DNA from: Cellulomonas sp. S1-8
Lineage (GTDB): Bacteria > Actinomycetota > Actinomycetes > Actinomycetales > Cellulomonadaceae
Reading direction: 5' to 3'
Assembly: GCF_026184235.1 (NCBI RefSeq)
Contig: NZ_CP110806.1
Span: 1,054,001 to 1,118,000, forward strand
DNA length: 64,000 bases
The position numbers and the translations under genes were made by a program. How positions within the stretch are numbered: the stretch's first letter is position 1; every line of letters begins with the position of its first letter. This document shows positions 7,795 through 60,407 of this stretch, one piece after another. Under the pieces are notes generated by a model. It did no database searches. It worked only from the letters and a program-made list of their open reading frames with translations, and was not told the DNA's origin.

Positions 7795-7891
7795 TGACCG
7801 GCGCCGTCGGGCCCGCGTGGTCAAGAACCAGCGGCGGCGTGCCGATGACATTGCCGGGGCAGCGATCCCTCCCGCCGACCCGAAGGACTCC

Positions 7892-9088
7892 GTGACCGCC
7901 TCCGACCAGGTACCGGGCCGCCGCGCAGCACGCGCGCGCGACCGGGCCTCTCGCGCCGCCGCGCAGGCGGTGGTGCTCGCGCTCGTCGCGGGCGGCACCA
8001 GCGCGTTCGCCGCGATGCACAAGGACGTGACCGTCGACGTCGACGGCACCGAGGTGCAGGTGCAGACGTTCGGGCGCACGGTGTCGGACGTGCTGGCCGC
8101 CGGGGGCATCGAGGTGTCCGAGGGCGACCTGGTGGCGCCGGGCCTCGACCAGCCGGTGGGGCGTACGGGTCAGGTCGTCGTGCGGCACGGCCGCGAGATC
8201 GCGGTCGAGGTCGACGGTGAGCAGCGCGAGGTCTGGACGACCGCGCTGACCGTGGGCGAGGCCGTCGAGGAGCTGGGGCTGCGCGACGGCGTGCGCCTGT
8301 CGGCGTCGCGCTCCGCCACGGTGGGCCGCGACGTGCTGCGCGTCTCCACCGAGAAGACCGTGCACCTCGTCGTCGACGGCCAGGTCATCGACGGCGTGAC
8401 GAGCGGGTCGACCGTGCGGGACGCGCTGCGGGAGATCGGGCTCGTCCTCGAGGAGGCGGACCAGGTCTCCGTCCCGCTGGACGCGGCGGCCGTCGACGGG
8501 CTCGTCGTGCTGGTCACGCGCGCGGCGACCGGCGGCGAGACCGTCACGGAGGCCGTGCCGTTCGCCGAGGTCGAGGTCGAGGACCCGCTGCTCGTCAAGG
8601 GCAACCGCGCCGTCAAGACCAAGGGCAAGGCCGGTCTGCGCACGACGACGTACTCCCTGGACGTCGTCGGCGGCGTGGTCGTGGGCCGCACGGTGCTGGC
8701 GTCGGTGGTGACCGTGGCCCCGGTCGACCAGGTGACCCGTGTCGGCACGGCCGAGCTGCCGGACCCGTCGACCGTGGCCGTCGAGCCGGGCACCGCCCAG
8801 GCGATGGGCAAGGAGATGGCCGCGGCCCGCGGGTGGGGCGACGACCAGTTCGCCTGCCTGCTCTCGCTGTGGAACAAGGAGAGCGGCTGGCGCTGGAACG
8901 CCGAGAACAAGTCCTCGGGCGCGTACGGCATCCCGCAGTCCCTGCCGGGCTCGAAGATGGCGTCCGTCGCCGACGACTGGCGCACGAACCCGGCCACCCA
9001 GATCACCTGGGGGCTGAACTACATCGCCGGCCGGTACGGCGACCCGTGCGGTGCGTGGGCGCACTCGCAGGCCAAGAACTGGTACTGA
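7892..9088 (+). CDS. Secreted cell-wall enzyme: DUF348 repeats + G5 + transglycosylase-like domain
   Basis: 398 residues from GTG 7892, chosen because AAGGA lies four bases upstream; longer in-frame starts exist but read poor sequence. A basic N-terminus and one hydrophobic segment (AVVLALVAGGTSAFAA) give export or anchoring. Then come three DUF348 ubiquitin-like modules (about 45-215), a G5 domain (about 220-295) and a C-terminal lysozyme-like domain with LWNKESGWRWNAENKSSGAY and WGLNYIAGRYGDPCGAW. The Glu of NKESGW is the likely catalytic acid. This terminal domain is of the aggregation-promoting-factor/SLT type, not the Rpf type of the downstream paralogue. Predicted role: peptidoglycan remodelling outside the cell. 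Confidence 0.88.
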   Translation: MTASDQVPGRRAARARDRASRAAAQAVVLALVAGGTSAFAAMHKDVTVDVDGTEVQVQTFGRTVSDVLAAGGIEVSEGDLVAPGLDQPVGRTGQVVVRHGREIAVEVDGEQREVWTTALTVGEAVEELGLRDGVRLSASRSATVGRDVLRVSTEKTVHLVVDGQVIDGVTSGSTVRDALREIGLVLEEADQVSVPLDAAAVDGLVVLVTRAATGGETVTEAVPFAEVEVEDPLLVKGNRAVKTKGKAGLRTTTYSLDVVGGVVVGRTVLASVVTVAPVDQVTRVGTAELPDPSTVAVEPGTAQAMGKEMAAARGWGDDQFACLLSLWNKESGWRWNAENKSSGAYGIPQSLPGSKMASVADDWRTNPATQITWGLNYIAGRYGDPCGAWAHSQAKNWY

Positions 9089-9390
9089 CCTCCCCTTTCG
9101 TCGCCGTCGGCCGTCGCGCGCTGGATTCACACCGCCGGACGGGTGATGTCGACGTGACGCGCGTCTCGTCGCGCAGGGGTTGGAATCCCGGTCACGATTC
9201 CGTTACGGTCGCGTGTCACGTTTGCACGGACGGGTGAACCCGCTCGTCCGGGTGACATCGGCGGCCGCTCGCGCGGCCGCTGCGAACCGCCGGATCGGGG
9301 TCCCTCCGTCGTGCGGACGTGCACGGCGACCCGTCGCCACGCCACGCCCCGCGGCACCCCGTGCCCGGGCGCGACGACGGCTGGAGCCTC
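9089..9390 (+). promoter_or_regulatory. 302-bp intergenic region upstream of rpf
   Basis: No gene supported. It contains the second copy of the GTCAC/GTTAC element (9190-9210), a GC-rich leader with several small inverted repeats (for example GCGGCCGCTCGCGCGGCCGC near 9262-9281) and the ribosome-binding site CTGGAG (9381-9386) before GTG 9391. Some actinobacterial rpf leaders carry a c-di-AMP (ydaO) riboswitch; I could not match its conserved core here with confidence. Confidence 0.55.
9190..9210 (+). promoter_or_regulatory. Shared regulatory element, copy 2 (MtrA-like)
   Basis: GTCACGATTCCGTTACGGTC (from 9191) is nearly identical to the element at 7775-7794. A further GTCACG follows at about 9215, giving an array of GTCAC half-sites. 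It lies about 180 bp before the rpf start. Confidence 0.45.
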
Positions 9391-10635
9391 GTGCAGAACT
9401 CGACCCGCCACACCGGTCCGACCCCCGCGACGGCCCACACCGCCGCGACCCCGCCCGACACCGGACCGGAGCCGGGTCACCTGCCCGCCGCCACGGCCGC
9501 CCCGCGCCGCCGGCTGCGCTGGCCGCTCGTCGCCGCCGGAGCCGCCGTGCTCGTCGTGGGCGCCGGCGGGGCCGCCTACGCGCAGGCCCACAAGACCGTC
9601 GCGCTCGACGTCGACGGCGAGCTCACCCACGTCACCACGTTCGCCGGCTCCGTCGAGGGGCTGCTCGCGGCCCACGACGTCGAGGTCGGCGACCGCGACA
9701 CCGTCTCGCACAGCGGCTCGCTCGCCGACGGCGCCGAGATCGTCGTCCGGCACGCCACCGCGCTCGTCGTGCAGGTCGACGGCACCCGGCAGGTCGTCTG
9801 GACCACCGCGCTCAGCGCCGACGAGGCCCTCGACACGCTCGCGTCCCGCGCCCGCACGGTCGCGCTCGTCGCCTCCCGGTCGGCCGACCGCGCCGACCTG
9901 CCGCTCGACCTCACGCTGAGCGGGCGCGCGGAGGTCCTCGTCGACGGGGGCGTGATCGACGTCCCCGACGCCGACGCGACCGTCTCGGAGGTCCTCGCCG
10001 AGCTCGGCGTCACGCTGCAGCCGCTCGACCGCGTGCACGTGCAGAACGGCCCCACGGGCGTCGTCCAGCTCGTCGTGCAGCGCGTCGTCGTCCAGGACGT
10101 CGCGACGACGTCCGAGGTGCCGTTCACGTCGCGCACGCAGGACGACGCGTCGCGGCTCGTCGGCCAGAAGGTCGTCGCGCAGGCCGGCGTGCCGGGCGTG
10201 CGCACGGTCGTCGACCGCGTCACCACGGTCGACGGTGTCGAGGAGACCCGCGAGCCCGTCAGCGACGGCGTCACGCAGGCCCCCGTCGAGGAGGTCGTCC
10301 ACGTCGGCACCAAGCCGCGTCCCGTCGTCGCAGCGGCACCCGCCGCGTCGGCCGGCTCGGCTGCCGCAGGCCCGATCGCCGCCGGCGGCGACGCCGACTC
10401 GCTCAACTGGGCCGCGCTGGCGAAGTGCGAGTCCGGCGGCCGCGCCGACGTCGTCTCGTCGACCGGCAAGTACCACGGCCTGTACCAGTTCTCCGTCGCC
10501 ACGTGGCAGGCGGTCGGCGGTGCCGGCCTGCCGTCGCAGGCGTCGGCCGAGGAACAGACCGCCCGCGCGAAGATGCTCTACAACCGCTCGGGTGCCGGCC
10601 AGTGGCCGCACTGCGGCAAGAACCTCTTCAGCTGA
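9391..10635 (+). CDS. rpfB: Resuscitation-promoting factor (RpfB-like)
   Basis: 414 residues from GTG 9391 (CTGGAG four bases upstream). A Pro/Thr-rich cytoplasmic stretch and a membrane helix (LVAAGAAVLVVGAGGAAYA) precede DUF348 modules, a G5 domain (SEVPFTSRTQDDASRLVGQ onward), an Ala-rich linker and a C-terminal Rpf domain: WAALAKCESGG with the catalytic Glu, GLYQFSVATWQAVGG and the second Cys in WPHC, which should form the Rpf disulfide. It cleaves peptidoglycan and in relatives promotes regrowth of dormant cells. Tandem with a related enzyme upstream and followed by rsmA and ispE, the conserved actinobacterial order. Confidence 0.95.
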   Translation: MQNSTRHTGPTPATAHTAATPPDTGPEPGHLPAATAAPRRRLRWPLVAAGAAVLVVGAGGAAYAQAHKTVALDVDGELTHVTTFAGSVEGLLAAHDVEVGDRDTVSHSGSLADGAEIVVRHATALVVQVDGTRQVVWTTALSADEALDTLASRARTVALVASRSADRADLPLDLTLSGRAEVLVDGGVIDVPDADATVSEVLAELGVTLQPLDRVHVQNGPTGVVQLVVQRVVVQDVATTSEVPFTSRTQDDASRLVGQKVVAQAGVPGVRTVVDRVTTVDGVEETREPVSDGVTQAPVEEVVHVGTKPRPVVAAAPAASAGSAAAGPIAAGGDADSLNWAALAKCESGGRADVVSSTGKYHGLYQFSVATWQAVGGAGLPSQASAEEQTARAKMLYNRSGAGQWPHCGKNLFS

Positions 10636-10639
10636 CCAC

Positions 10640-10696
10640 CGGACTGGATTGCTCTCTCACCAGCCCCTGGAGGGCGTGAGAGAGCAATCCAGTCCG
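10640..10696 (+). terminator. Perfect 21-bp hairpin made of an inverted repeat pair, 4 bp after the rpf stop
   Basis: The left arm 10640-10660 (includes GGACTGGATTGCTCTCTCAC) and right arm 10676-10696 (includes GTGAGAGAGCAATCCAGTCC) are exact complements around a 15-nt loop. No T-tract follows. The arms are copies of the dispersed GAGAGAGCAATCCAG repeat family. Position right after the rpf stop codon suggests transcription termination or 3' end protection. Confidence 0.7.
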
Positions 10697-10778
10697 CCCA
10701 CCGGATCCCCCTGTGGGCGTGAGAGAGCAATCCAGTCTGGCCACCGGACCCCCTGTGGGCGTGAGAGAGCAATCCAGT
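10643..10778 (+). repeat. Intergenic repeat cluster A (4 copies of an 18-bp element)
   Basis: One copy in reverse (10643-10660) and three forward copies of GTGAGAGAGCAATCCAGT at 10676-10693, 10719-10736 and 10761-10778. The forward copies are spaced 43 and 42 bp, and the linkers are also alike (ccaccgga-ccccctgtgggc), so the unit was duplicated as a block of about 42 bp. The same core appears in the cluster at 31154-31400. Confidence 0.9.
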
Positions 10779-10824
10779 GCCTCCGCCTCGGGGTGGTGTG
10801 GGAGGGCGTCGTCGTCGAGGCCCG

Positions 10825-10830
10825 TAGGCT
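10825..10830 (+). promoter_or_regulatory. Candidate -10 box of rsmA (leaderless)
   Basis: TAGGCT ends eight bases before the rsmA ATG at 10839; there is no ribosome-binding site between them beyond a short G-run. This fits a leaderless transcript starting at the initiation codon. Confidence 0.45.
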
Positions 10831-10838
10831 CGGGGGCC

Positions 10839-11798
10839 ATGTCGGCGATCACCCTGCTCGGGCCTGCGCAGATCCGGGCGCTCGCGCAGCGCGCCGGCAT
10901 CCGGCCCACCAAGACGCTCGGTCAGAACTTCGTGATCGATGCCGGCACGGTCCGCAAGATCGTGCGGCAGGCGGACGTCACGCCCGGTGAGCGGGTCGTC
11001 GAGGTCGGCCCGGGGCTCGGGTCGCTGACGCTCGGGCTGCTCGAGGCCGACGCCGACGTGGTCGCGGTCGAGATCGACCCCGTCCTGGCGCGCCTCCTGC
11101 CGCAGACGGTCGTCGCGCACGTCCCCGGGCTCACCGTGGACACCGCGGCGAGCACGCAGGACGACGGCTCGCGCACCGTCGTGCTGCGCGACGGTGACGG
11201 GCGCGCGCGGCTGACCGTCGTGACGCAGGACGCCCTGACGGTCACGGCGCTGCCGGGCCCGCCACCGACCGCCCTCGTCGCGAACCTGCCGTACAACGTG
11301 TCGGTCCCGGTGCTCCTCACGTTCCTCGAGCGCTTCGACTCCCTGCAGCGCGGGCTGATCATGGTGCAGGCGGAGGTCGCCGACCGGCTCGCGGCGCCCC
11401 CGGGCAGCCGCACGTACGGGGTGCCGTCGGCCAAGGTCGCCTGGTACGCGGCGGCGCGCCGCACCGCGACCGTGGGCCGCGCCGTGTTCTGGCCGGCGCC
11501 GCACGTCGACTCGGCGCTCGTCCGCCTGGACCGCCGGGAGCCCCCCGCGGCGACGGTCTCCCGGCGCGAGGTGTTCGCGGTCGTCGACGCCGCGTTCGCG
11601 CAGCGCCGCAAGATGCTGCGCTCGGCGCTCGCGGGCATCGCCGGGTCGTCGGCCGCCGCCGAGTCGGCGGTCCGCGCCGCGGGCCTGGACCCGCAGTCGC
11701 GCGGTGAGCAGGTCGACGTGGTCGGCTTCGCGCGGATCGCCGAGGCGCTGGAGATCGCGCGGCCCGCGCCGCCGGGACCTGGCACAGTGTCACCGTGA
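10839..11798 (+). CDS. rsmA: 16S rRNA (adenine(1518)-N6/adenine(1519)-N6)-dimethyltransferase
   Basis: KsgA/Dim1 methyltransferase of 319 residues that dimethylates two adjacent adenines in the 3' hairpin of 16S rRNA during 30S maturation. Visible motifs: [12 protein letters not shown] at the N-terminus, the SAM loop [18 protein letters not shown] (about 54-71), the acidic VAVEIDP, and catalytic motif [11 protein letters not shown]. The C-terminal helical domain includes [13 protein letters not shown]. The ATG at 10839 follows the leaderless-type promoter; longer in-frame readings run back into the repeat cluster and are not credible. The stop overlaps the ispE start (GTGA). Confidence 0.96.
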
Positions 11799-12761: not shown

Positions 12762-14231
12762 ATGACCGACGTGGCGGGACGCACGCTCGACGTCGTGCGC
12801 CGCGTCGACGCCGCGCCGCCGGCGCCGACGGACCCCGACGAGCCGGGCTGGGTGCGGCCGTCCCCGGACGCCGACGTGCTCCGCTGGGACGCGCTGCTGG
12901 CCGCGGCCCTGTACGTGGGTGCGCTGCTGTCGATGGTGCTCGTGAGCGTGGCCGGGATCTACGAGGAGCCGTCGGAGGGCTGGGTCGCGGCGCTCGCGCT
13001 CGCGGCGACCACGCTGCCGCTCGCGGTGCGACGCCGCTGGCCGAGCGCCGTGCTCGTGGTCGTCGGCGCGGCCTTCGTCGTCGCCCAGGTGCTGCAGGTG
13101 CCCGAGGTGCTGGTGTCGAACATCGCGCTGTTCTGCGCGATGTACACGGTCGGCGCGTGGGAGACGGACCGGCGCCGCGCGACCACGGTCCGCGGCGTGG
13201 TCGTCGTCGCGATGATCGTGTGGCTCTTCGTCGCGCTGTTCCTCGCGGCGACCGACCCGGAGCTGGCCGACGAGATCCCGGACCGCGTCGGCATCTTCTC
13301 GCCCTTCGTGTCGTGGACACTGCTGCAGCTGCTGACCAACGCCCTGTACTTCGGCGGGGCGTGGTTCTTCGGTGAGCACGCGTGGCGCTCGGCGCGCGAG
13401 CGGTCCCGCACCGCGTGGCGCACGCACCTGCTGGTGCTCGAGCGCAGGCGCGCGGAGGAGCAGGCGGTCGCGCTGGAGCGGTTGCGGCTGGCGCGCGAGC
13501 TGCACGACGCCGTCGCCCACCACGTCTCGCTCATGGGCGTGCAGGCCGCCGCGGCGCGCACGGTCCTCCTCGCGGACCCCGTCCGCGCGGCCGACGCGCT
13601 CGGCCACGTCGAGCAGGCCGCGCGCGACGCGGTGCGCGAGCTGCACGGCATCCTCGGCATGCTGCGCGACGGCGAGGGCATGGGGGTCGGCGGCGGGGAC
13701 GGTCCGGCGCGCGCCGTCGACGCGACGGCGTCGGGGGAGGCGCTCGCGTCGCTCGACGTCGGCCGGCTGCCGGACCTCGTCGAACGGGCCCGCGCGGCCG
13801 GCCTGCAGGTCGCCTACCAGGAGGTCGGGGAGCCGCAGCGGCTGCGTCCGCTCGCGTCCCTCAACCTGTACCGCATCGCGCAGGAGGCGCTGACCAACAC
13901 CCGCAAGCACGCGGGCGTCGGTGCGCACGCCGACGTCCGGCTGCGCTGGCTGGCCGACGAGGTCGAGCTCGAGGTGTCCGACGACGGCGGCTCGGGTCGG
14001 CGCACCGGGCCGGTGCCGTCGTCGGGCATGGGGCTCGTCGGCATGCGGGAGCGCACCGCCTCCGACGGGGGCACGTTCGAGGCGGCACGGCGCCGATCCG
14101 GCGGCTTCGTCGTGCGCGTCCGGCTGCCGCTGGTGGCGCCCGACGACGGCGGGACGACGACCGCGGCACAGGTCGCGGCGCACGACGAGGGCATGGCGGA
14201 GGACGAGGGCATGGCGGAGGACCGGGCATGA
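12762..14231 (+). CDS. Two-component sensor histidine kinase (NarL-associated, HisKA_3)
   Basis: 489 residues from ATG 12762. A Pro/Asp-rich start leads into about six membrane helices (about 45-205) with little extracytoplasmic sequence, a coiled linker rich in Arg/Glu, the HisKA_3 dimerisation motif ARELHDAVAHHVS (phospho-His about 247) and a HATPase domain (NLYRIAQEALTNTRKHAG, VSDDGGSG, GMGLVGMRER). This architecture (DesK-like) suggests sensing within the membrane. The C-terminus ends in a twice-repeated EGMAED, the product of an 18-bp tandem duplication. The stop overlaps the response-regulator start (ATGA). Confidence 0.93.
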   Translation: MTDVAGRTLDVVRRVDAAPPAPTDPDEPGWVRPSPDADVLRWDALLAAALYVGALLSMVLVSVAGIYEEPSEGWVAALALAATTLPLAVRRRWPSAVLVVVGAAFVVAQVLQVPEVLVSNIALFCAMYTVGAWETDRRRATTVRGVVVVAMIVWLFVALFLAATDPELADEIPDRVGIFSPFVSWTLLQLLTNALYFGGAWFFGEHAWRSARERSRTAWRTHLLVLERRRAEEQAVALERLRLARELHDAVAHHVSLMGVQAAAARTVLLADPVRAADALGHVEQAARDAVRELHGILGMLRDGEGMGVGGGDGPARAVDATASGEALASLDVGRLPDLVERARAAGLQVAYQEVGEPQRLRPLASLNLYRIAQEALTNTRKHAGVGAHADVRLRWLADEVELEVSDDGGSGRRTGPVPSSGMGLVGMRERTASDGGTFEAARRRSGGFVVRVRLPLVAPDDGGTTTAAQVAAHDEGMAEDEGMAEDRA

Positions 14232-14263
14232 CGCAGGGTGCGGGCATGACGCAGGGTGCGGGC
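14187..14263 (+). repeat. Two adjacent 18-bp tandem duplications across the kinase/regulator junction
   Basis: GAGGGCATGGCGGAGGAC occurs at 14187-14204 and 14205-14222 (end of the kinase). ATGACGCAGGGTGCGGGC occurs at 14228-14245 and 14246-14263 (start of the regulator). All copies are exact. Both duplications keep frame, and the second one also duplicates the start codon. Confidence 0.9.
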
Positions 14264-29604: not shown

Positions 29605-31041
29605 TCAGGACGGGGTCAGGGCGTGCCGGGCGGCGACGGCCCCGGCGACGGTGGCGACGAACGTGCGGTCGTCGGCGAGGTCGGGCGCGAGCGCCGCGAC
29701 GACGAACGCCGCGGCCGTGTCTGGGTCGGCGTCCCGCAGCCGGTCGGCGAGGTGCGCGGCGGCGAGGTCCGGGTGGGCCTCGTCGCCGGCCACGCCGACG
29801 CTGTCGCGCAGGTGCTGGGCCCAGTCGGCGAGGACGCCCGCACCGGCCGGGCCCACGGGGAGCCCGGCGTCGCGTCGCGTGCGGGCGACGGCCAGCACGC
29901 GCACGGGCAGCTTCTGCGACCCGTCGCGGGCGATCTGCTCCAGGCGGTGCTCGATGCGCGCGTTCGCGAAGCGGGAGCGCAGGTCGGCGAGCGCGTCGTC
30001 GAGCTCGCCGCCCGTCAGCGGGAGCACCTCGCGGGCCTCACGCCACAGCTCCTCCAGCCGGGTCCGGACCACGGGGTCGGCGTACGCCTCGGCGACGGTG
30101 CGGGCCCCGCGCGGCAGGCCCGCGTACGCGAGCAGCGAGTGCCCGGCGTTCAGCAGCCACAGCTTGCGGTGCTCGTACGGTGCGAGGTCGGCGACGAACC
30201 GCGCGCCCGCGACGTCCCAGGCGGGGCGCCCGGCGGGGAACCGGCCGGAGAGCACCCACTCGCGGAACGGCTCGGTCACGACGGGCGCGGCGTCCTGCCG
30301 GCCGGTCGCGTCGCGCACGGCGGTGCGGTCGGCGTCCGTGGTGGCGGGCGTGATCCGGTCGACCATGCTCGAGACGAACGCGACGTGCGTCCGGACCCAG
30401 CCGGCCAGGTCGTGGTCGACGTCCTCGGCGAGCTCGAGGACGACGCGCCGCAGCGCGTCGCCGTTGTCGGGCAGGTTGTCCAGGCTCACCACCGCCAGGG
30501 TTCCGCCGCCGGCGGCGCGTCGGGCGCGCAGCCCGTCGAGCACGCGCCCCGGCGCGGTCGTCGCGGCGCGCGCCGTGCCACCCGCGTCCCCGTCGGCGAC
30601 GTACCGGCCGAGCAGCGCCGCGTCGTCGCGGACCTGGGCGTCGCGGCGGTCGAGCGCACCCGTGGAGGTCCGCCGGTACCCGGCCTCGGTGACGGTGAGC
30701 GTGAGCACCGCGACCTCCGGCCGGGCCAGCAGGGCGCGCCACCGGGTGGCGTCGGCGCCGTCGTGCACCTCCACGAGCGCGTCGACGACCCGGGTCCGGT
30801 CACCGTCGACGCCCCGCTCGACGAGCGTGTACCGCCCGTCCTGCGAGGCGAGGTCGTGCGCGGCCCGCGCCGAGCGCCCGGTGAACCCGGCCACACCCCA
30901 CCGCTGCGCCGGCGGCAGGTCCGCACCGGCGTCCTGCGTGTAGGTCAGCAGGTGGGCGCGGGCGAACGCGCCGAGGCCGAGGTGCACGACGCGGACCGGC
31001 GGCGCCGGCTCGTCACGGCGCCAGGCGGGGGAGACGTCCAC
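29605..31041 (-). CDS. uxuB: Mannitol dehydrogenase family protein, probable D-fructuronate reductase (UxuB)
   Basis: 478-residue NAD-dependent polyol/sugar-acid dehydrogenase. Rossmann start [18 protein letters not shown], then GVAGFTGRS, a central [34 protein letters not shown], and [19 protein letters not shown] with [20 protein letters not shown] (the Lys-x5-Asn-x2-His catalytic motif). Sequence alone cannot separate mannitol 2-dehydrogenase from fructuronate reductase; the cluster supports the latter. First gene of the uxuB-manD-gntK unit, 25 bp before manD, with an operator-like element about 70-95 bp upstream. Confidence 0.88.
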
Positions 31042-31153: not shown

Positions 31154-31400
31154 GCGAGAGTGCAATCCAGCCCACCCACAATCCGCGAGAGTGCGATCCA
31201 GCCCACCCCTTTGCCGTGAGAGTGCAATCCAGCACAGCCTCTGGCCGCGAGAGTGCAATCCAGCACAGCCTCTGGCCGCGAGAGTGCAATCCAGCTCGCT
31301 GCGGACGGTGCTGGATTGCTCTCTCACGCCCATGGGGTGGGGCTGGATTGCTCTCTCGTGCTCATGGGGTGGGCGGGGTGGTGCTGGATTGCTCTCTCGC
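31154..31400 (+). repeat. Intergenic repeat cluster B (8 copies)
   Basis: Five forward copies of G(C/T)GAGAGTGC(A/G)ATCCAG start at 31154, 31185, 31216, 31247 and 31278, an exact 31-bp period. The 14-bp linkers after copies 3 and 4 are identical (cacagcctctggcc). Three reverse copies (CTGGATTGCTCTCTC) follow at 31311, 31343 and 31384. The last forward and first reverse copy could fold into a stem with one mismatch. Same family as cluster A at 10643-10778. Confidence 0.9.
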
Positions 31401-31419: not shown

Positions 31420-32433
31420 TCAGGGGGGTGGGGCTGTGGACTCGCGCTCGACCAGGCGGGCGGGGAGTCGCGCGGGACGGACCTCGCGCGGTGTGCGTGC
31501 CCGGGCCTCGTGCAGCAGCATGCGCACGGCGTACTGCCCGAGCGCCGTGAGCGGGGCCGCCACCGTCGTGAGCGTCGGCGTGCACAGCTCGGCACCGAAG
31601 ATGTCGTCGAACCCGACGACGCTCAGGTCCTGCGGGATGCGCACCCCCTGCTGCGTCAGGCGCCGCAGCAGGCCGATCGCGACGAGGTCGTTGTACGCCA
31701 CGACGCCCGTCACGCCGCTGGCGAGCACCGGCTCGGCTGCGAGCGCGCCGCCGGCCAGCGTCGGGGGGAACGGGCCGACGCGGTGCGCGTGCATCTCCAG
31801 GTCGTGCGCGGCCTCCCGCATCGCCAGCCAGCGCGTACCGTCCGCCCACGACGCCTCCGGGCCCGCGACGTACCCGATCGACCGGTGCCCCAGGCTGCCC
31901 AGGTGCTCGACGGCCTGCCGCATGCCCTTGGCGTTGTCGGTGACGACGCTCGGGATGCCGGTGACGACGCGGTTGAGCACGACCGTCGGACGTTGTCGCG
32001 CGATCACGCGCACCGCGGAGTCCGACATCCGTGACGTGCCCAGCACCAGGCCCTCGACGAACGGGAGGGACCGCTCGAGCGCCGTGCGCTCGACGTGGGC
32101 GTCCTCGAGCACGTCGGCGACGAGCAGCGTGTAGTCCTGCTCGTTGGCGGCCGCCTCGGCGCCGCGGATGATCTCGAAGTAGAACGGGTTGGTCACGTCG
32201 GACACGACCATGGCCAGCATCGACGTGCGTCCGGTCGGCAGGGCGCGTGCGAGCGCGTTGGCGCGGTAGCCCAGGCGTTCGGCCGCCTCGTGGATGCGCG
32301 CGGACGTCTCGACGCTGACGCGTCCGGGCCGGGAGAACGCGCGGGACACCGTCGAGGGCGCGACCCCGACGGCCGCCGCGACGTCGTAGATCGTCGGGGC
32401 GGACCGTGCCCGGCCACCATGCCGATCGGCCAT
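31420..32433 (-). CDS. LacI family regulator of the glucuronide cluster
   Basis: 337 residues: N-terminal HTH and hinge (about 12-65; TIYDVAAAVGVAPSTVSRAF, VSVETSARIHEAAERLGY) and a periplasmic-binding-like sensor domain. Divergent from the beta-glucuronidase gene and downstream of the uxuB operon. The two matching operator-like elements (31113-31137 and 32455-32479) make it the likely repressor of both, probably induced by a glucuronate-derived intermediate. A TAGCGT box (32446-32441) ends seven bases before the ATG, so it looks leaderless, and the second operator lies just upstream of that promoter, allowing autoregulation. Confidence 0.93.
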   Translation of the reverse strand: MADRHGGRARSAPTIYDVAAAVGVAPSTVSRAFSRPGRVSVETSARIHEAAERLGYRANALARALPTGRTSMLAMVVSDVTNPFYFEIIRGAEAAANEQDYTLLVADVLEDAHVERTALERSLPFVEGLVLGTSRMSDSAVRVIARQRPTVVLNRVVTGIPSVVTDNAKGMRQAVEHLGSLGHRSIGYVAGPEASWADGTRWLAMREAAHDLEMHAHRVGPFPPTLAGGALAAEPVLASGVTGVVAYNDLVAIGLLRRLTQQGVRIPQDLSVVGFDDIFGAELCTPTLTTVAAPLTALGQYAVRMLLHEARARTPREVRPARLPARLVERESTAPPP

Positions 32434-56960: not shown

Positions 56961-58520
56961 ATGATCCGCTACCGATCCCTGCATTCCCGGGGCATCGCCG
57001 CTCTCGTCGGGAGCGCTCTCGTCCTCGGAGGGGCGACCGCGGCTCTCGCCGACCAGCGCACCGCCGTCGCCCAGCCTGCCGCGCTGACCGCGCCCGCCCA
57101 CGGCGACCGCCTCCTCGTCGGGGAGCGCCTGGACGTGGGCGCGAAGCTGCGGTCCCGCAACGGCCAGTACACGCTCACGGTCGAGGCGTCCGGTGCCGCG
57201 GCCCTCCTCACGTCCAGCGGGGGTGCGCTGTGGCGCACCCGTGCCGCGGGCACGGGCGCCTACCTGACCGTGAAGGCGGACGGCAAGGTCGTGCTGTACA
57301 ACCGCAAGGGCGTGCCGGTCTGGTACGGCCCGGCGGTCGGGCGCAACGCCGTCCTGGTCGTGCAGGACGCGGGCCACCTCGTCGAGTACGTCGGCGGCGT
57401 CGCCCGCTGGTGGACCACGCGCAAGGCCTACGCGCCGGTGCTGCGGATGCCCGCGGCAGCCGCGACGACCGCCCCGCGGCCGACCGCGTCGCCCACGCCG
57501 AGCCGGACGCCGGTCGCGACGCCGTCGCCCACGCCCAGCCCGACGCCGGTCGCGACCCCGTCGCCCACGCCGAGCCCGACGAAGGCCCCGGCGCCGAGCC
57601 CCACCCCGTCACCCACCCCGGCGCCGGCCCCACCCGCGCAGGAGGCCGGGGCGCGCGACGCGGCCGTCTACCCGTTCGCCTCGACGTCGATCTGGAACAC
57701 CCCGATCGGGTCGCGGGCCGCGTTCGACGGGGCGACCAGCGCGCGCACCCTGAGCCTGAACAGCGGCGCCAAGCCCGTGGTCAACCGGGACTCCTGGTCG
57801 GTGTCGGTCGCTGCGGCCGTCCCGCAGGACACGCGCGTCACGCTGGAGGCCGTGCGCAACAAGACGAGCTACACGGCCAACATCCCCGCGGGGACCGTGG
57901 CGACGGCGGGTGAGGACAAGCACGTGACCGTCATCCAGCCCGACCGGCTCCTCGCGTACGACACGTTCAAGATGGAGAAGGTGTCGAACACGCACTGGGA
58001 GGCGCAGGTGGCCTTCCCCGTGGACCTGCGGGGCACGGGCATGGGCACGGGCACCCGGGCCGCGGGTGTCCCCGCGGTGGCGGGCCTGATCCGGGCGCAG
58101 GAGCTCGAGCAGAACTCGATCAAGCACGCGCTGGCCCTGGCGATCCCGGGCGAGATGCTCAAGCCCGGACCGGTCTGGCCCGCGTCGCGCCAGGACTCCG
58201 ACATCAGCGGCTACACGGGTGCCGTCCCCATGGGGACGTTGTTCGCGCTGCCGCCGTCGGTCGACGTCTCCAAGCTCGGGCTGTCGCCCGAGGGCACCGC
58301 GCTCGCACGCGCCCTGCAGGACTACGGCGCGTACGTGGTCGACCGCGCCGGGACCGTCGCGCTCTACTGCGAGCTCGCGTGCGACGACGACGGCTACGAG
58401 AAGCTGCGTGAGGCATGGCGGGTCCTGCACCCGCAGGTGCGTGCGGTGGCGAACAGCTCCGCGAGCTCCGTCGGGGGTGGCGGCTCACCGCGCGTCCCGC
58501 TGCTGGCCGACGTCGGCTGA
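56961..58520 (+). CDS. Secreted protein: lectin-like N-terminus, Pro/Thr linker, conserved C-terminal domain (paralogue 1)
   Basis: 519 residues, ATG 56961 behind AGGAGG. Signal peptide of about 30 residues (GIAALVGSALVLGGATAALA). Residues about 45-150 resemble a bulb-type mannose-binding lectin (RSRNGQYTLTVEASGAAALL, GKVVLYNRKGVPVWYG). A Pro/Thr/Ser/Val linker with 12-residue repeats (36-bp DNA repeats from about 57510) follows. The C-terminal 290 residues (SIWNTPIGSRAAFDGAT, HVTVIQPDRLLAYDTFKMEK, GAVPMGTLFALPPSVDVSKL) form a domain I know from actinobacterial secreted proteins without an assigned function. Location in the polysaccharide locus and a lectin fold suggest binding or remodelling of the polymer. 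Confidence 0.85.
   Translation: MIRYRSLHSRGIAALVGSALVLGGATAALADQRTAVAQPAALTAPAHGDRLLVGERLDVGAKLRSRNGQYTLTVEASGAAALLTSSGGALWRTRAAGTGAYLTVKADGKVVLYNRKGVPVWYGPAVGRNAVLVVQDAGHLVEYVGGVARWWTTRKAYAPVLRMPAAAATTAPRPTASPTPSRTPVATPSPTPSPTPVATPSPTPSPTKAPAPSPTPSPTPAPAPPAQEAGARDAAVYPFASTSIWNTPIGSRAAFDGATSARTLSLNSGAKPVVNRDSWSVSVAAAVPQDTRVTLEAVRNKTSYTANIPAGTVATAGEDKHVTVIQPDRLLAYDTFKMEKVSNTHWEAQVAFPVDLRGTGMGTGTRAAGVPAVAGLIRAQELEQNSIKHALALAIPGEMLKPGPVWPASRQDSDISGYTGAVPMGTLFALPPSVDVSKLGLSPEGTALARALQDYGAYVVDRAGTVALYCELACDDDGYEKLREAWRVLHPQVRAVANSSASSVGGGGSPRVPLLADVG

Positions 58521-58883: not shown

Positions 58884-60407
<1,524 letters not shown>

What the first reader, a model, noticed from the sequence alone, without database searches (positions are those of the whole stretch)
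10640..10778. Dispersed GAGAGAGCAATCCAG repeat forms a perfect 21-bp hairpin and a tandem array behind rpf
Seen directly: an inverted pair with arms of 21 bp begins 4 bp after the rpf stop, then two more forward copies follow at 43- and 42-bp spacing with similar linkers. The exact conservation of both arms implies selection or recent spread. It could be a lineage-specific transcription terminator or 3' mRNA element that multiplies like REP sequences, or a small non-autonomous mobile repeat. No match to a named repeat family is known to me.
Basis: partly seen in the sequence, partly recalled or inferred. Interest (0 to 1): 0.75.

Follow-up and report, generated by a model that had tools for sequence, protein, structure and literature searches.

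The report
Phased repeat arrays at gene ends
One group of related Cellulomonas bacteria carries up to hundreds of copies of a short, nearly invariant DNA word, laid out in regularly spaced arrays mostly just behind genes; facing copies form hairpins like those that end transcription, and the spacing suggests that an unknown protein binds them.

Summary
In detail: 21-bp inverted pair, distance from the rpf stop, 43/42-bp forward copies, and a second array at 31156-31398.
The genome holds 209 copies (<=2 mismatches; reversed control 1). Twelve of 81 genus genomes carry the family (14-323 copies); by longest match they are the 12 with KsgA >=86% identical.
Arrays sit mostly behind genes: 60 of 70 are intergenic and only 5 of those lie between divergent genes (167 of 764 gaps do). 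In tandem gene pairs the median distance from the stop is 22.5 nt. A second species agrees (21 of 22 intergenic, none divergent).
At rpf-ksgA, relatives without arrays have an ordinary terminator-type hairpin; three of five array species build one from two repeat arms. The terminator reading is partly right.
But 28 of 70 clusters have one copy or one orientation, spacings are helically phased (about 31/42/52 bp), arrays also lie in frame inside six genes, and the word is better kept than its linkers.
Best reading: a new STAR/REP-like array-forming repeat, probably a protein-binding site, whose facing pairs double as terminators. No REP transposase (PF01797) was found in the 12 genomes; the binder is unknown.

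The parts
10640..10696 (.). Perfect inverted pair (<>), 21-bp arms, 15-nt loop, 4 nt behind the rpf stop; terminator-type hairpin made of two repeat arms
10644..10658 (-). Repeat copy GAGAGAGCAATCCAG
10678..10692 (+). Repeat copy GAGAGAGCAATCCAG
10721..10735 (+). Repeat copy, 43 bp from the previous one
10763..10777 (+). Repeat copy, 42 bp from the previous one
10664..10778 (+). Tandem array, period 43, 2.7 copies; in the compared unit pair all differences lie in the linker
9319..10635 (+). Gene upstream of the array: Rpf-type protein (DUF348, G5, transglycosylase-like domain)
10839..11798 (+). Gene downstream: KsgA (ribosomal RNA adenine dimethylase)
31156..31294 (+). Second cluster, five direct copies (31-bp spacing), four GAGAGTGCAATCCAG and one GAGAGTGCGATCCAG
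31311..31398 (-). Second cluster, three GAGAGAGCAATCCAG copies on the - strand (spacing 32 and 41)
31420..32433 (-). LacI-family regulator whose 3' end lies 21 nt from the second cluster
29605..31041 (-). Mannitol-dehydrogenase-family gene on the other side of the second cluster (start side, 114 nt)

Best explanation
A lineage-specific dispersed repeat whose unit is a C-rich tract of about 15-25 nt followed by a conserved 15-20 bp word (SSGYGAGAGNKCRATCCAGYNC). Units multiply into arrays in both orientations. SHOWN by sequence: restriction to 12 closely related genomes; placement mostly at 3' ends; at one locus (rpf-ksgA), placement where relatives have a terminator-type hairpin; the word diverges less than its linkers; helically phased spacing; occasional in-frame arrays in proteins. 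INFERRED: (1) the phased arrays are bound as DNA by a protein sitting on one face of the helix; (2) facing neighbours are transcribed as hairpins and stop RNA polymerase, which makes the 3' zone a tolerated or even favoured home; (3) arrays grow and shrink by tandem duplication, and new loci are seeded by an unknown trans-acting factor or ectopic copying.
For: Copy number and controls (234 PWM hits in 1.126 Mb, none on reversed sequence). Restriction to close relatives. 3'-end placement: 21 convergent, 34 tandem and 5 divergent of 60, against 173/424/167 of 764 gaps; nearer the stop in 28 of 34 tandem pairs, p=0.0002; second species 11/10/0 of 21. Terminator replacement at rpf-ksgA; hairpins behind stops in G096/G100. 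Ends with facing copies have hairpins as strong as array-free convergent ends (<=-25 kcal/mol: 0.64 vs 0.58), direct-only arrays weaker (0.43). Phasing: one spacing per locus, 35 of 42 direct and 18 of 23 >< within 2.1 bp of 31.5+10.5k, 40% expected; three genomes. Constraint: 19 of 425 word positions differ against 55 of 475 linker positions in 25 duplicated unit pairs, p=9e-5; with stricter linker identity 13 of 357 against 34 of 406, p=0.007. In-frame arrays.
Against: No binding protein was found. Copies are recognised by the word itself, which biases the constraint test, and unit pairs of one cluster are not independent. Phasing was measured after the main peak was seen, and orthologous arrays in the three genomes may share ancestry. 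The <> class fits 10.5 bp less well. Facing arms share changes beyond shuffled partners in G000, marginally in G096/G100, not significantly in G102, but adjacent direct copies are just as alike, so local duplication can explain it. No clear strand preference relative to the gene (58 sense, 44 antisense copies in tandem pairs). In several loci an independent hairpin lies next to the array (e.g. 2037237, 3572468). Convergent excess is modest (p=0.024). Copy number falls to 14 and 34 in G100 and G096, so the arrays are dispensable.
Confidence: 0.55

Rival explanations
1. A family of sequence-related intrinsic terminators only: selection acts on the RNA hairpin, and single or direct copies are decayed or half-built hairpins.
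For: G096 and G100 keep close inverted pairs forming hairpins a few tens of nt behind stop codons; arm-built hairpins stand in place of ordinary ones at rpf-ksgA in G000, G003 and G101; the two arms of close pairs match better than shuffled partners in G000; one singleton pairs with a degenerate arm (3915131).
Against: 12 of 54 multi-copy clusters are one orientation only and 16 of 70 are single recognised copies; helical phasing of direct copies has no RNA explanation that I know of; arrays occur in coding sequence.
Confidence: 0.2
2. Selfish or neutral repeat: arrays expand by slippage and copy to new places, and survive only where insertion does little harm (behind genes, in flexible protein loops). 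No function.
For: Copy number varies 14-323 between close species; scarce between divergent genes; several different reading frames used inside genes (by eye); array content differs between species at the same locus.
Against: The word is kept better than its linker within duplicated units and spacing is phased, so something reads the word.
Confidence: 0.15
3. Chromosome-organising sites (in the manner of SlmA, Noc or matS sites; names recalled): the arrays mark the origin half of the chromosome.
For: 38 of 48 clusters that hold a GAGAGWGCAATCCAG copy lie in the origin-proximal half of G000, p=6e-5, origin placed by parS sites and ParAB-like genes named by eye; phasing.
Against: Strong variation and near absence in G096/G100; core genes are often origin-proximal (recalled), which could explain the bias; no binder known.
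Confidence: 0.1

Closest known systems
STAR elements of Staphylococcus (PMC3532100; abstract and passages read)
   Same: Short conserved core (14 bp) in arrays separated by less conserved, locus-specific spacers; intergenic; copy number differs between species; local expansion; function and dispersal mechanism unknown
   Different: Core sequence unrelated; STAR described as direct repeats with spacers of 40 bp or more, the loci in the passages lie upstream of genes; here both orientations, mostly 3' ends, C-rich linkers, helical phasing, in-frame arrays in genes
REP/BIME sequences with RAYT transposases (features recalled; RepRanger paper PMC12306157, passages read)
   Same: Many copies, extragenic, at 3' ends, hairpin-forming clusters
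   Different: Unit here is not a palindrome on its own; no PF01797 match in any of the 12 genomes
Neisseria dRS3/NIME arrays (PMC3898611, passages read)
   Same: 20-bp repeats, hundreds of copies, concentrated in intergenic arrays
   Different: dRS3 is ATTCCC(N8)GGGAAT with terminal inverted repeats and lies with 30-160 bp RS elements; the word here does not fit that pattern (RS-like elements were not searched for)
Rickettsia palindromic elements (PMC10969869, passages read)
   Same: In-frame presence inside unrelated protein genes
   Different: RPEs are about 150-bp units; here arrays of 15-20 bp words, mostly intergenic
DNA uptake sequences (features recalled)
   Same: Conserved short word, inverted pairs at terminators
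   Different: DUS are far more numerous (1831-1910 in seven meningococcal genomes, table seen); phased arrays are not a DUS feature that I know of

Membership tests
REP/BIME | Associated REP transposase (RAYT, Y1 family PF01797) | tested here: not met
   0 of 12 repeat-bearing genomes; 1 of 81 in the genus, a non-bearer; the same search rang in 5 of 14 control genomes including E. coli
REP/BIME | Extragenic, at 3' ends | tested here: met
REP/BIME | Unit itself palindromic | tested here: not met
   consensus SSGYGAGAGNKCRATCCAGYNC is asymmetric; 28 of 70 clusters have one orientation or one recognised copy
STAR | Core T(G/A/T)TGTTG(G/T)GGCCC(C/A) | tested here: not met
   consensus compared with the one read; the genome was not scanned for the STAR core
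STAR | Arrays of a short core with variable, locus-specific spacers | tested here: met
dRS3/NIME | ATTCCC(N8)GGGAAT repeat | tested here: not met
   consensus compared with the pattern read; the genome was not scanned for it
Intrinsic terminator | Stable hairpin shortly behind the stop codon | tested here: inconclusive
   met where copies face each other, weaker for direct-only arrays
Intrinsic terminator | RNA 3' ends at the hairpin | not testable with these tools
   needs Term-seq
CRISPR | Cas genes beside arrays | not tested
   set aside on anatomy alone: mixed orientations, C-rich linkers, dozens of arrays
MITE | Terminal inverted repeats and target-site duplication | not tested
   insertion boundaries not resolved; the sites seen are too diverged
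Rfam RNA family | Match above gathering score | tested here: not met
   first array only (window 10500-10900): best 22.9 bits against a threshold of 79

The most novel reading that the evidence does not exclude
The phased arrays are binding sites of a dedicated DNA-binding protein that has colonised the terminator zones of this lineage, either as an architectural or nucleoid system concentrated in the origin half of the chromosome, or as the recognition site of a homing-like factor that spreads its own site. It was lost or never expanded in the G096/G100 lineage, where mainly terminator-type hairpins remain.
Probability: 0.3. Interest if true: 0.8.

Novelty: new variant of a known kind. Interest (0 to 1): 0.6.

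Why it matters
How short non-coding repeats without a transposase spread and persist is an open question (the STAR paper states that function, origin and spread are unknown). Here a group of species with 14-323 copies, near-bare sister species and comparable loci is available. The phasing gives a direct biochemical test (find the binder), and the replacement of an ordinary terminator by repeat arms gives a direct transcription test. In-frame arrays inside a haem-biosynthesis gene show how freely the repeat can enter genes.

Tried and rejected
Hairpins in the linkers: rejected, 85 distinct linkers fold no better than shuffles (mean -3.9 vs -3.5 kcal/mol, 32 of 85 lower). Mobile cassette flanked by arrays: rejected, flanked genes look unrelated by eye; the one AbiEi-type gene between two arrays in four species is explained by neighbouring 3' ends (Pfam, with a REase-like match below its cut-off). 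Plasmid or phage origin: no blastn match of the first array (window 10636-10790) in plasmids or phages; viral contigs gave 14 stretches with one exact hit each, taken as chance. Rfam: nothing above threshold for the first array. RAYT: none found in the 12 genomes. Compensatory change as proof of RNA pairing: not accepted, local duplication gives the same signal. G4 potential: 30 of 70 clusters against 45 of 322 array-free gaps of 120 nt or more, a by-product of the C-rich tract and not pursued. In print, within the held library only: no paper joins Cellulomonas with 'intergenic repeat' or 'dispersed repeats'; three that look unrelated join it with 'repetitive extragenic palindromic' (listing only).

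Full report
CHECK. The inverted pair 10640-10660/10676-10696 (21 nt, 15-nt loop) and forward copies at 43 and 42 bp are real. In the window the 15-mer has 12 sites with <=3 mismatches against 0.54 expected. The genome (4,504,702 bases, one contig) has 209 sites with <=2 mismatches; the reversed control has 1. A weight matrix started from 125 exact copies found 234 copies in 70 clusters in the 1.126 Mb that I held, and nothing on reversed sequence. Apart from the window and 3.763-4.5 Mb, stretches were chosen because they held copies. Consensus: SSGYGAGAGNKCRATCCAGYNC, with the free positions 5, 6 and 8 of the 15-mer counted from 0, preceded by a C-rich tract (positions -20 to -6: C 0.58-0.75, G 0.07-0.18; C enrichment reaches back to about -40).

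WHO HAS IT. With a degenerate pattern (<=1 mismatch), 12 of 81 genus genomes stand out: 323, 256, 239, 232, 168, 162, 87, 84, 83, 79, 34 and 14 copies. The other 69 have 0-6, near the control level of 0-5. By longest KsgA match the 12 are 86-91% identical to G000 and the rest 83% or less; G019 and G101 match in part or in two pieces, and one 74-residue fragment of a non-bearer (G095) also reaches 86%. So they are close relatives, probably one clade, though I built no tree with the many outgroups. A tree of hemB/L/C for 11 of the 12 (G007 lacking) plus one outgroup puts G029 deepest and G096+G100 beside G101, so the low counts of G096/G100 are probably a loss or a failure to expand.

WHERE. Genes were called with a simple codon-usage finder of my own, not a published tool. 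Of 70 clusters, 60 are intergenic: 34 between co-directional, 21 between convergent and 5 between divergent genes, against 424, 173 and 167 of 764 gaps. Convergent excess p=0.024, divergent deficit p=0.008. In the 34 tandem cases the stop side is nearer in 28; median 22.5 nt from the stop, 77 from the start. In G102 I fetched 22 of the 24 clusters among its first 100 listed places: 11 convergent, 10 tandem, 0 divergent, 1 in a gene; stop side nearer in 10 of 10. Of the remaining 10 clusters in G000, I read six as inside real genes: HemD, a CopA-type ATPase, UreF, an AAA ATPase, a double GNAT protein and an EamA-like transporter. Four are a small doubtful ORF, a stretch edge, an overlap with a short ORF and one weak hit (Pfam for four of the six, CopA and EamA named by eye).

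IN FRAME. HemD was readable in 10 of 12 sequences: pattern copies lie between the same two conserved segments in G000, G074, G016, G019, G102 and G101; none in G096, G100 or the outgroup G082; G068 has another in-frame tandem repeat there. CopA was readable in 6 of 12 and carries repeat sequence in all six, in G016 and G102 only as a GACAG variant seen by eye. UreF was readable in 5 of 11, with repeat-derived peptides by eye in all five. Different reading frames are used, so the peptide is not what is conserved.

TERMINATOR EVIDENCE. The rpf-ksgA gap was read in 10 clade members and 19 outgroup species (G007, G019 and G078 not readable; in G082 the script picked a wrong upstream stop and the true gap was read by eye). 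No outgroup carries the repeat; by eye on the predicted folds each has an ordinary long GC-rich hairpin behind rpf. G096, G100, G068 and G029 do the same; G074 has the hairpin plus one repeat behind it. In G000, G003 and G101 the first hairpin is made of two repeat arms. In G016 and G102 direct copies are followed by inverted copies. In G096/G100, 30 of 77 places became loci; of the 23 that I examined after dropping neighbours, 7 fall in called genes (mostly one-mismatch hits, probably chance) and most of the 16 intergenic ones sit in a strong hairpin by eye, usually within about 45 nt of a stop. Eight close inverted pairs were collected there. In G000, ends with facing copies reach <=-25 kcal/mol in 0.64 (convergent, n=28) and 0.63 (tandem, n=19); array-free ends 0.58 (n=146) and 0.35 (n=255); direct-only arrays 0.43 (n=14) and 0.33 (n=15). 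So facing pairs look like terminators and direct arrays do not. Clusters of one orientation are as frequent as chance (12 of 54, 11.5 expected).

PHASING. Adjacent direct copies peak at 30-33, 41-43 and 51-55 bp; >< pairs at 20-22, 28-32, 40-42 and 52; <> pairs at 17, 25, 34-35, 44-46 and 53 (three genomes; the G101 and G102 lists were cut at 100 places). With one value per locus in G000, 35 of 42 direct and 18 of 23 >< spacings lie within 2.1 bp of 31.5+10.5k; a smoothed resampling null was not reached in 5000 trials. The phase was chosen after seeing the main peak; leaving out spacings of 30-33, 15 of the remaining 22 direct values are still in phase (my count from the list). The <> class fits less well (p=0.016-0.026, best period 9.25-9.5). 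Linkers of 26-28 nt at different loci are hardly more alike than shuffled ones (0.48-0.52 against 0.41-0.48; 0 of 35 pairs at 0.7 or more); those of 16-17 nt somewhat more (0.46-0.47 against 0.35-0.38; 16 of 176 pairs). Shared descent of one linker therefore does not readily explain the second peak; a DNA-bound protein does.

CONSTRAINT. In 25 pairs of duplicated units the 17 word positions differ at 0.045 and linkers at 0.116 (p=9e-5); 13 of the 19 word changes fall on free positions. Copies are found by the word, with a loose threshold, so some bias remains.

MECHANISM. I commit to a protein-binding, array-forming repeat whose facing pairs also serve as terminators. The binding, the termination and the way of spreading are inferences. 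REP-type spread by a Y1 transposase is excluded as far as PF01797 can tell.

LITERATURE. Closest is the STAR element (PMC3532100; abstract and passages). NIME/dRS3 (PMC3898611), MITE/RPE (PMC10969869) and REP (PMC12306157) papers were read in passages only. That actinobacterial terminators often lack a U-tract is recalled; only the listing was seen.

Noticed in passing
G000 whole chromosome: Clusters crowd into the origin-proximal half (38 of 48). G003 looks the same by my count of exact-pattern places (24 of 32 clusters, assuming the origin at coordinate 0; no parS was found there).
   Followed up: partly
G000:2076743-2077600; L315-L317: An AbiEi-type gene with a weak REase-like match (72-74% identity between species, below KsgA's 90-91%) lies between two arrays in four species.
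   Followed up: partly
L261 (G068), HemD start: HemD of G068 has four in-frame copies of another 36-bp unit (TPTPPSPASRRS) at the same site, possibly a decayed form of the repeat.
   Followed up: no
window 14184-14263: 18-bp tandem repeats at the junction of a histidine-kinase-like gene and the next gene (names by eye).
   Followed up: no
window 57481-57581 and 59431-59518: 36-bp and 6/18-bp tandem repeats inside predicted genes.
   Followed up: no
G000:670086-670590: Largest cluster found: 11 copies, largely alternating in orientation, between divergent genes (MutY-like and a membrane protein, by eye), an exception to the 3'-end rule.
   Followed up: partly
window 7817-10635: Two consecutive Rpf-like genes with DUF348/G5-type sequence; only the second was checked by Pfam.
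   Followed up: no
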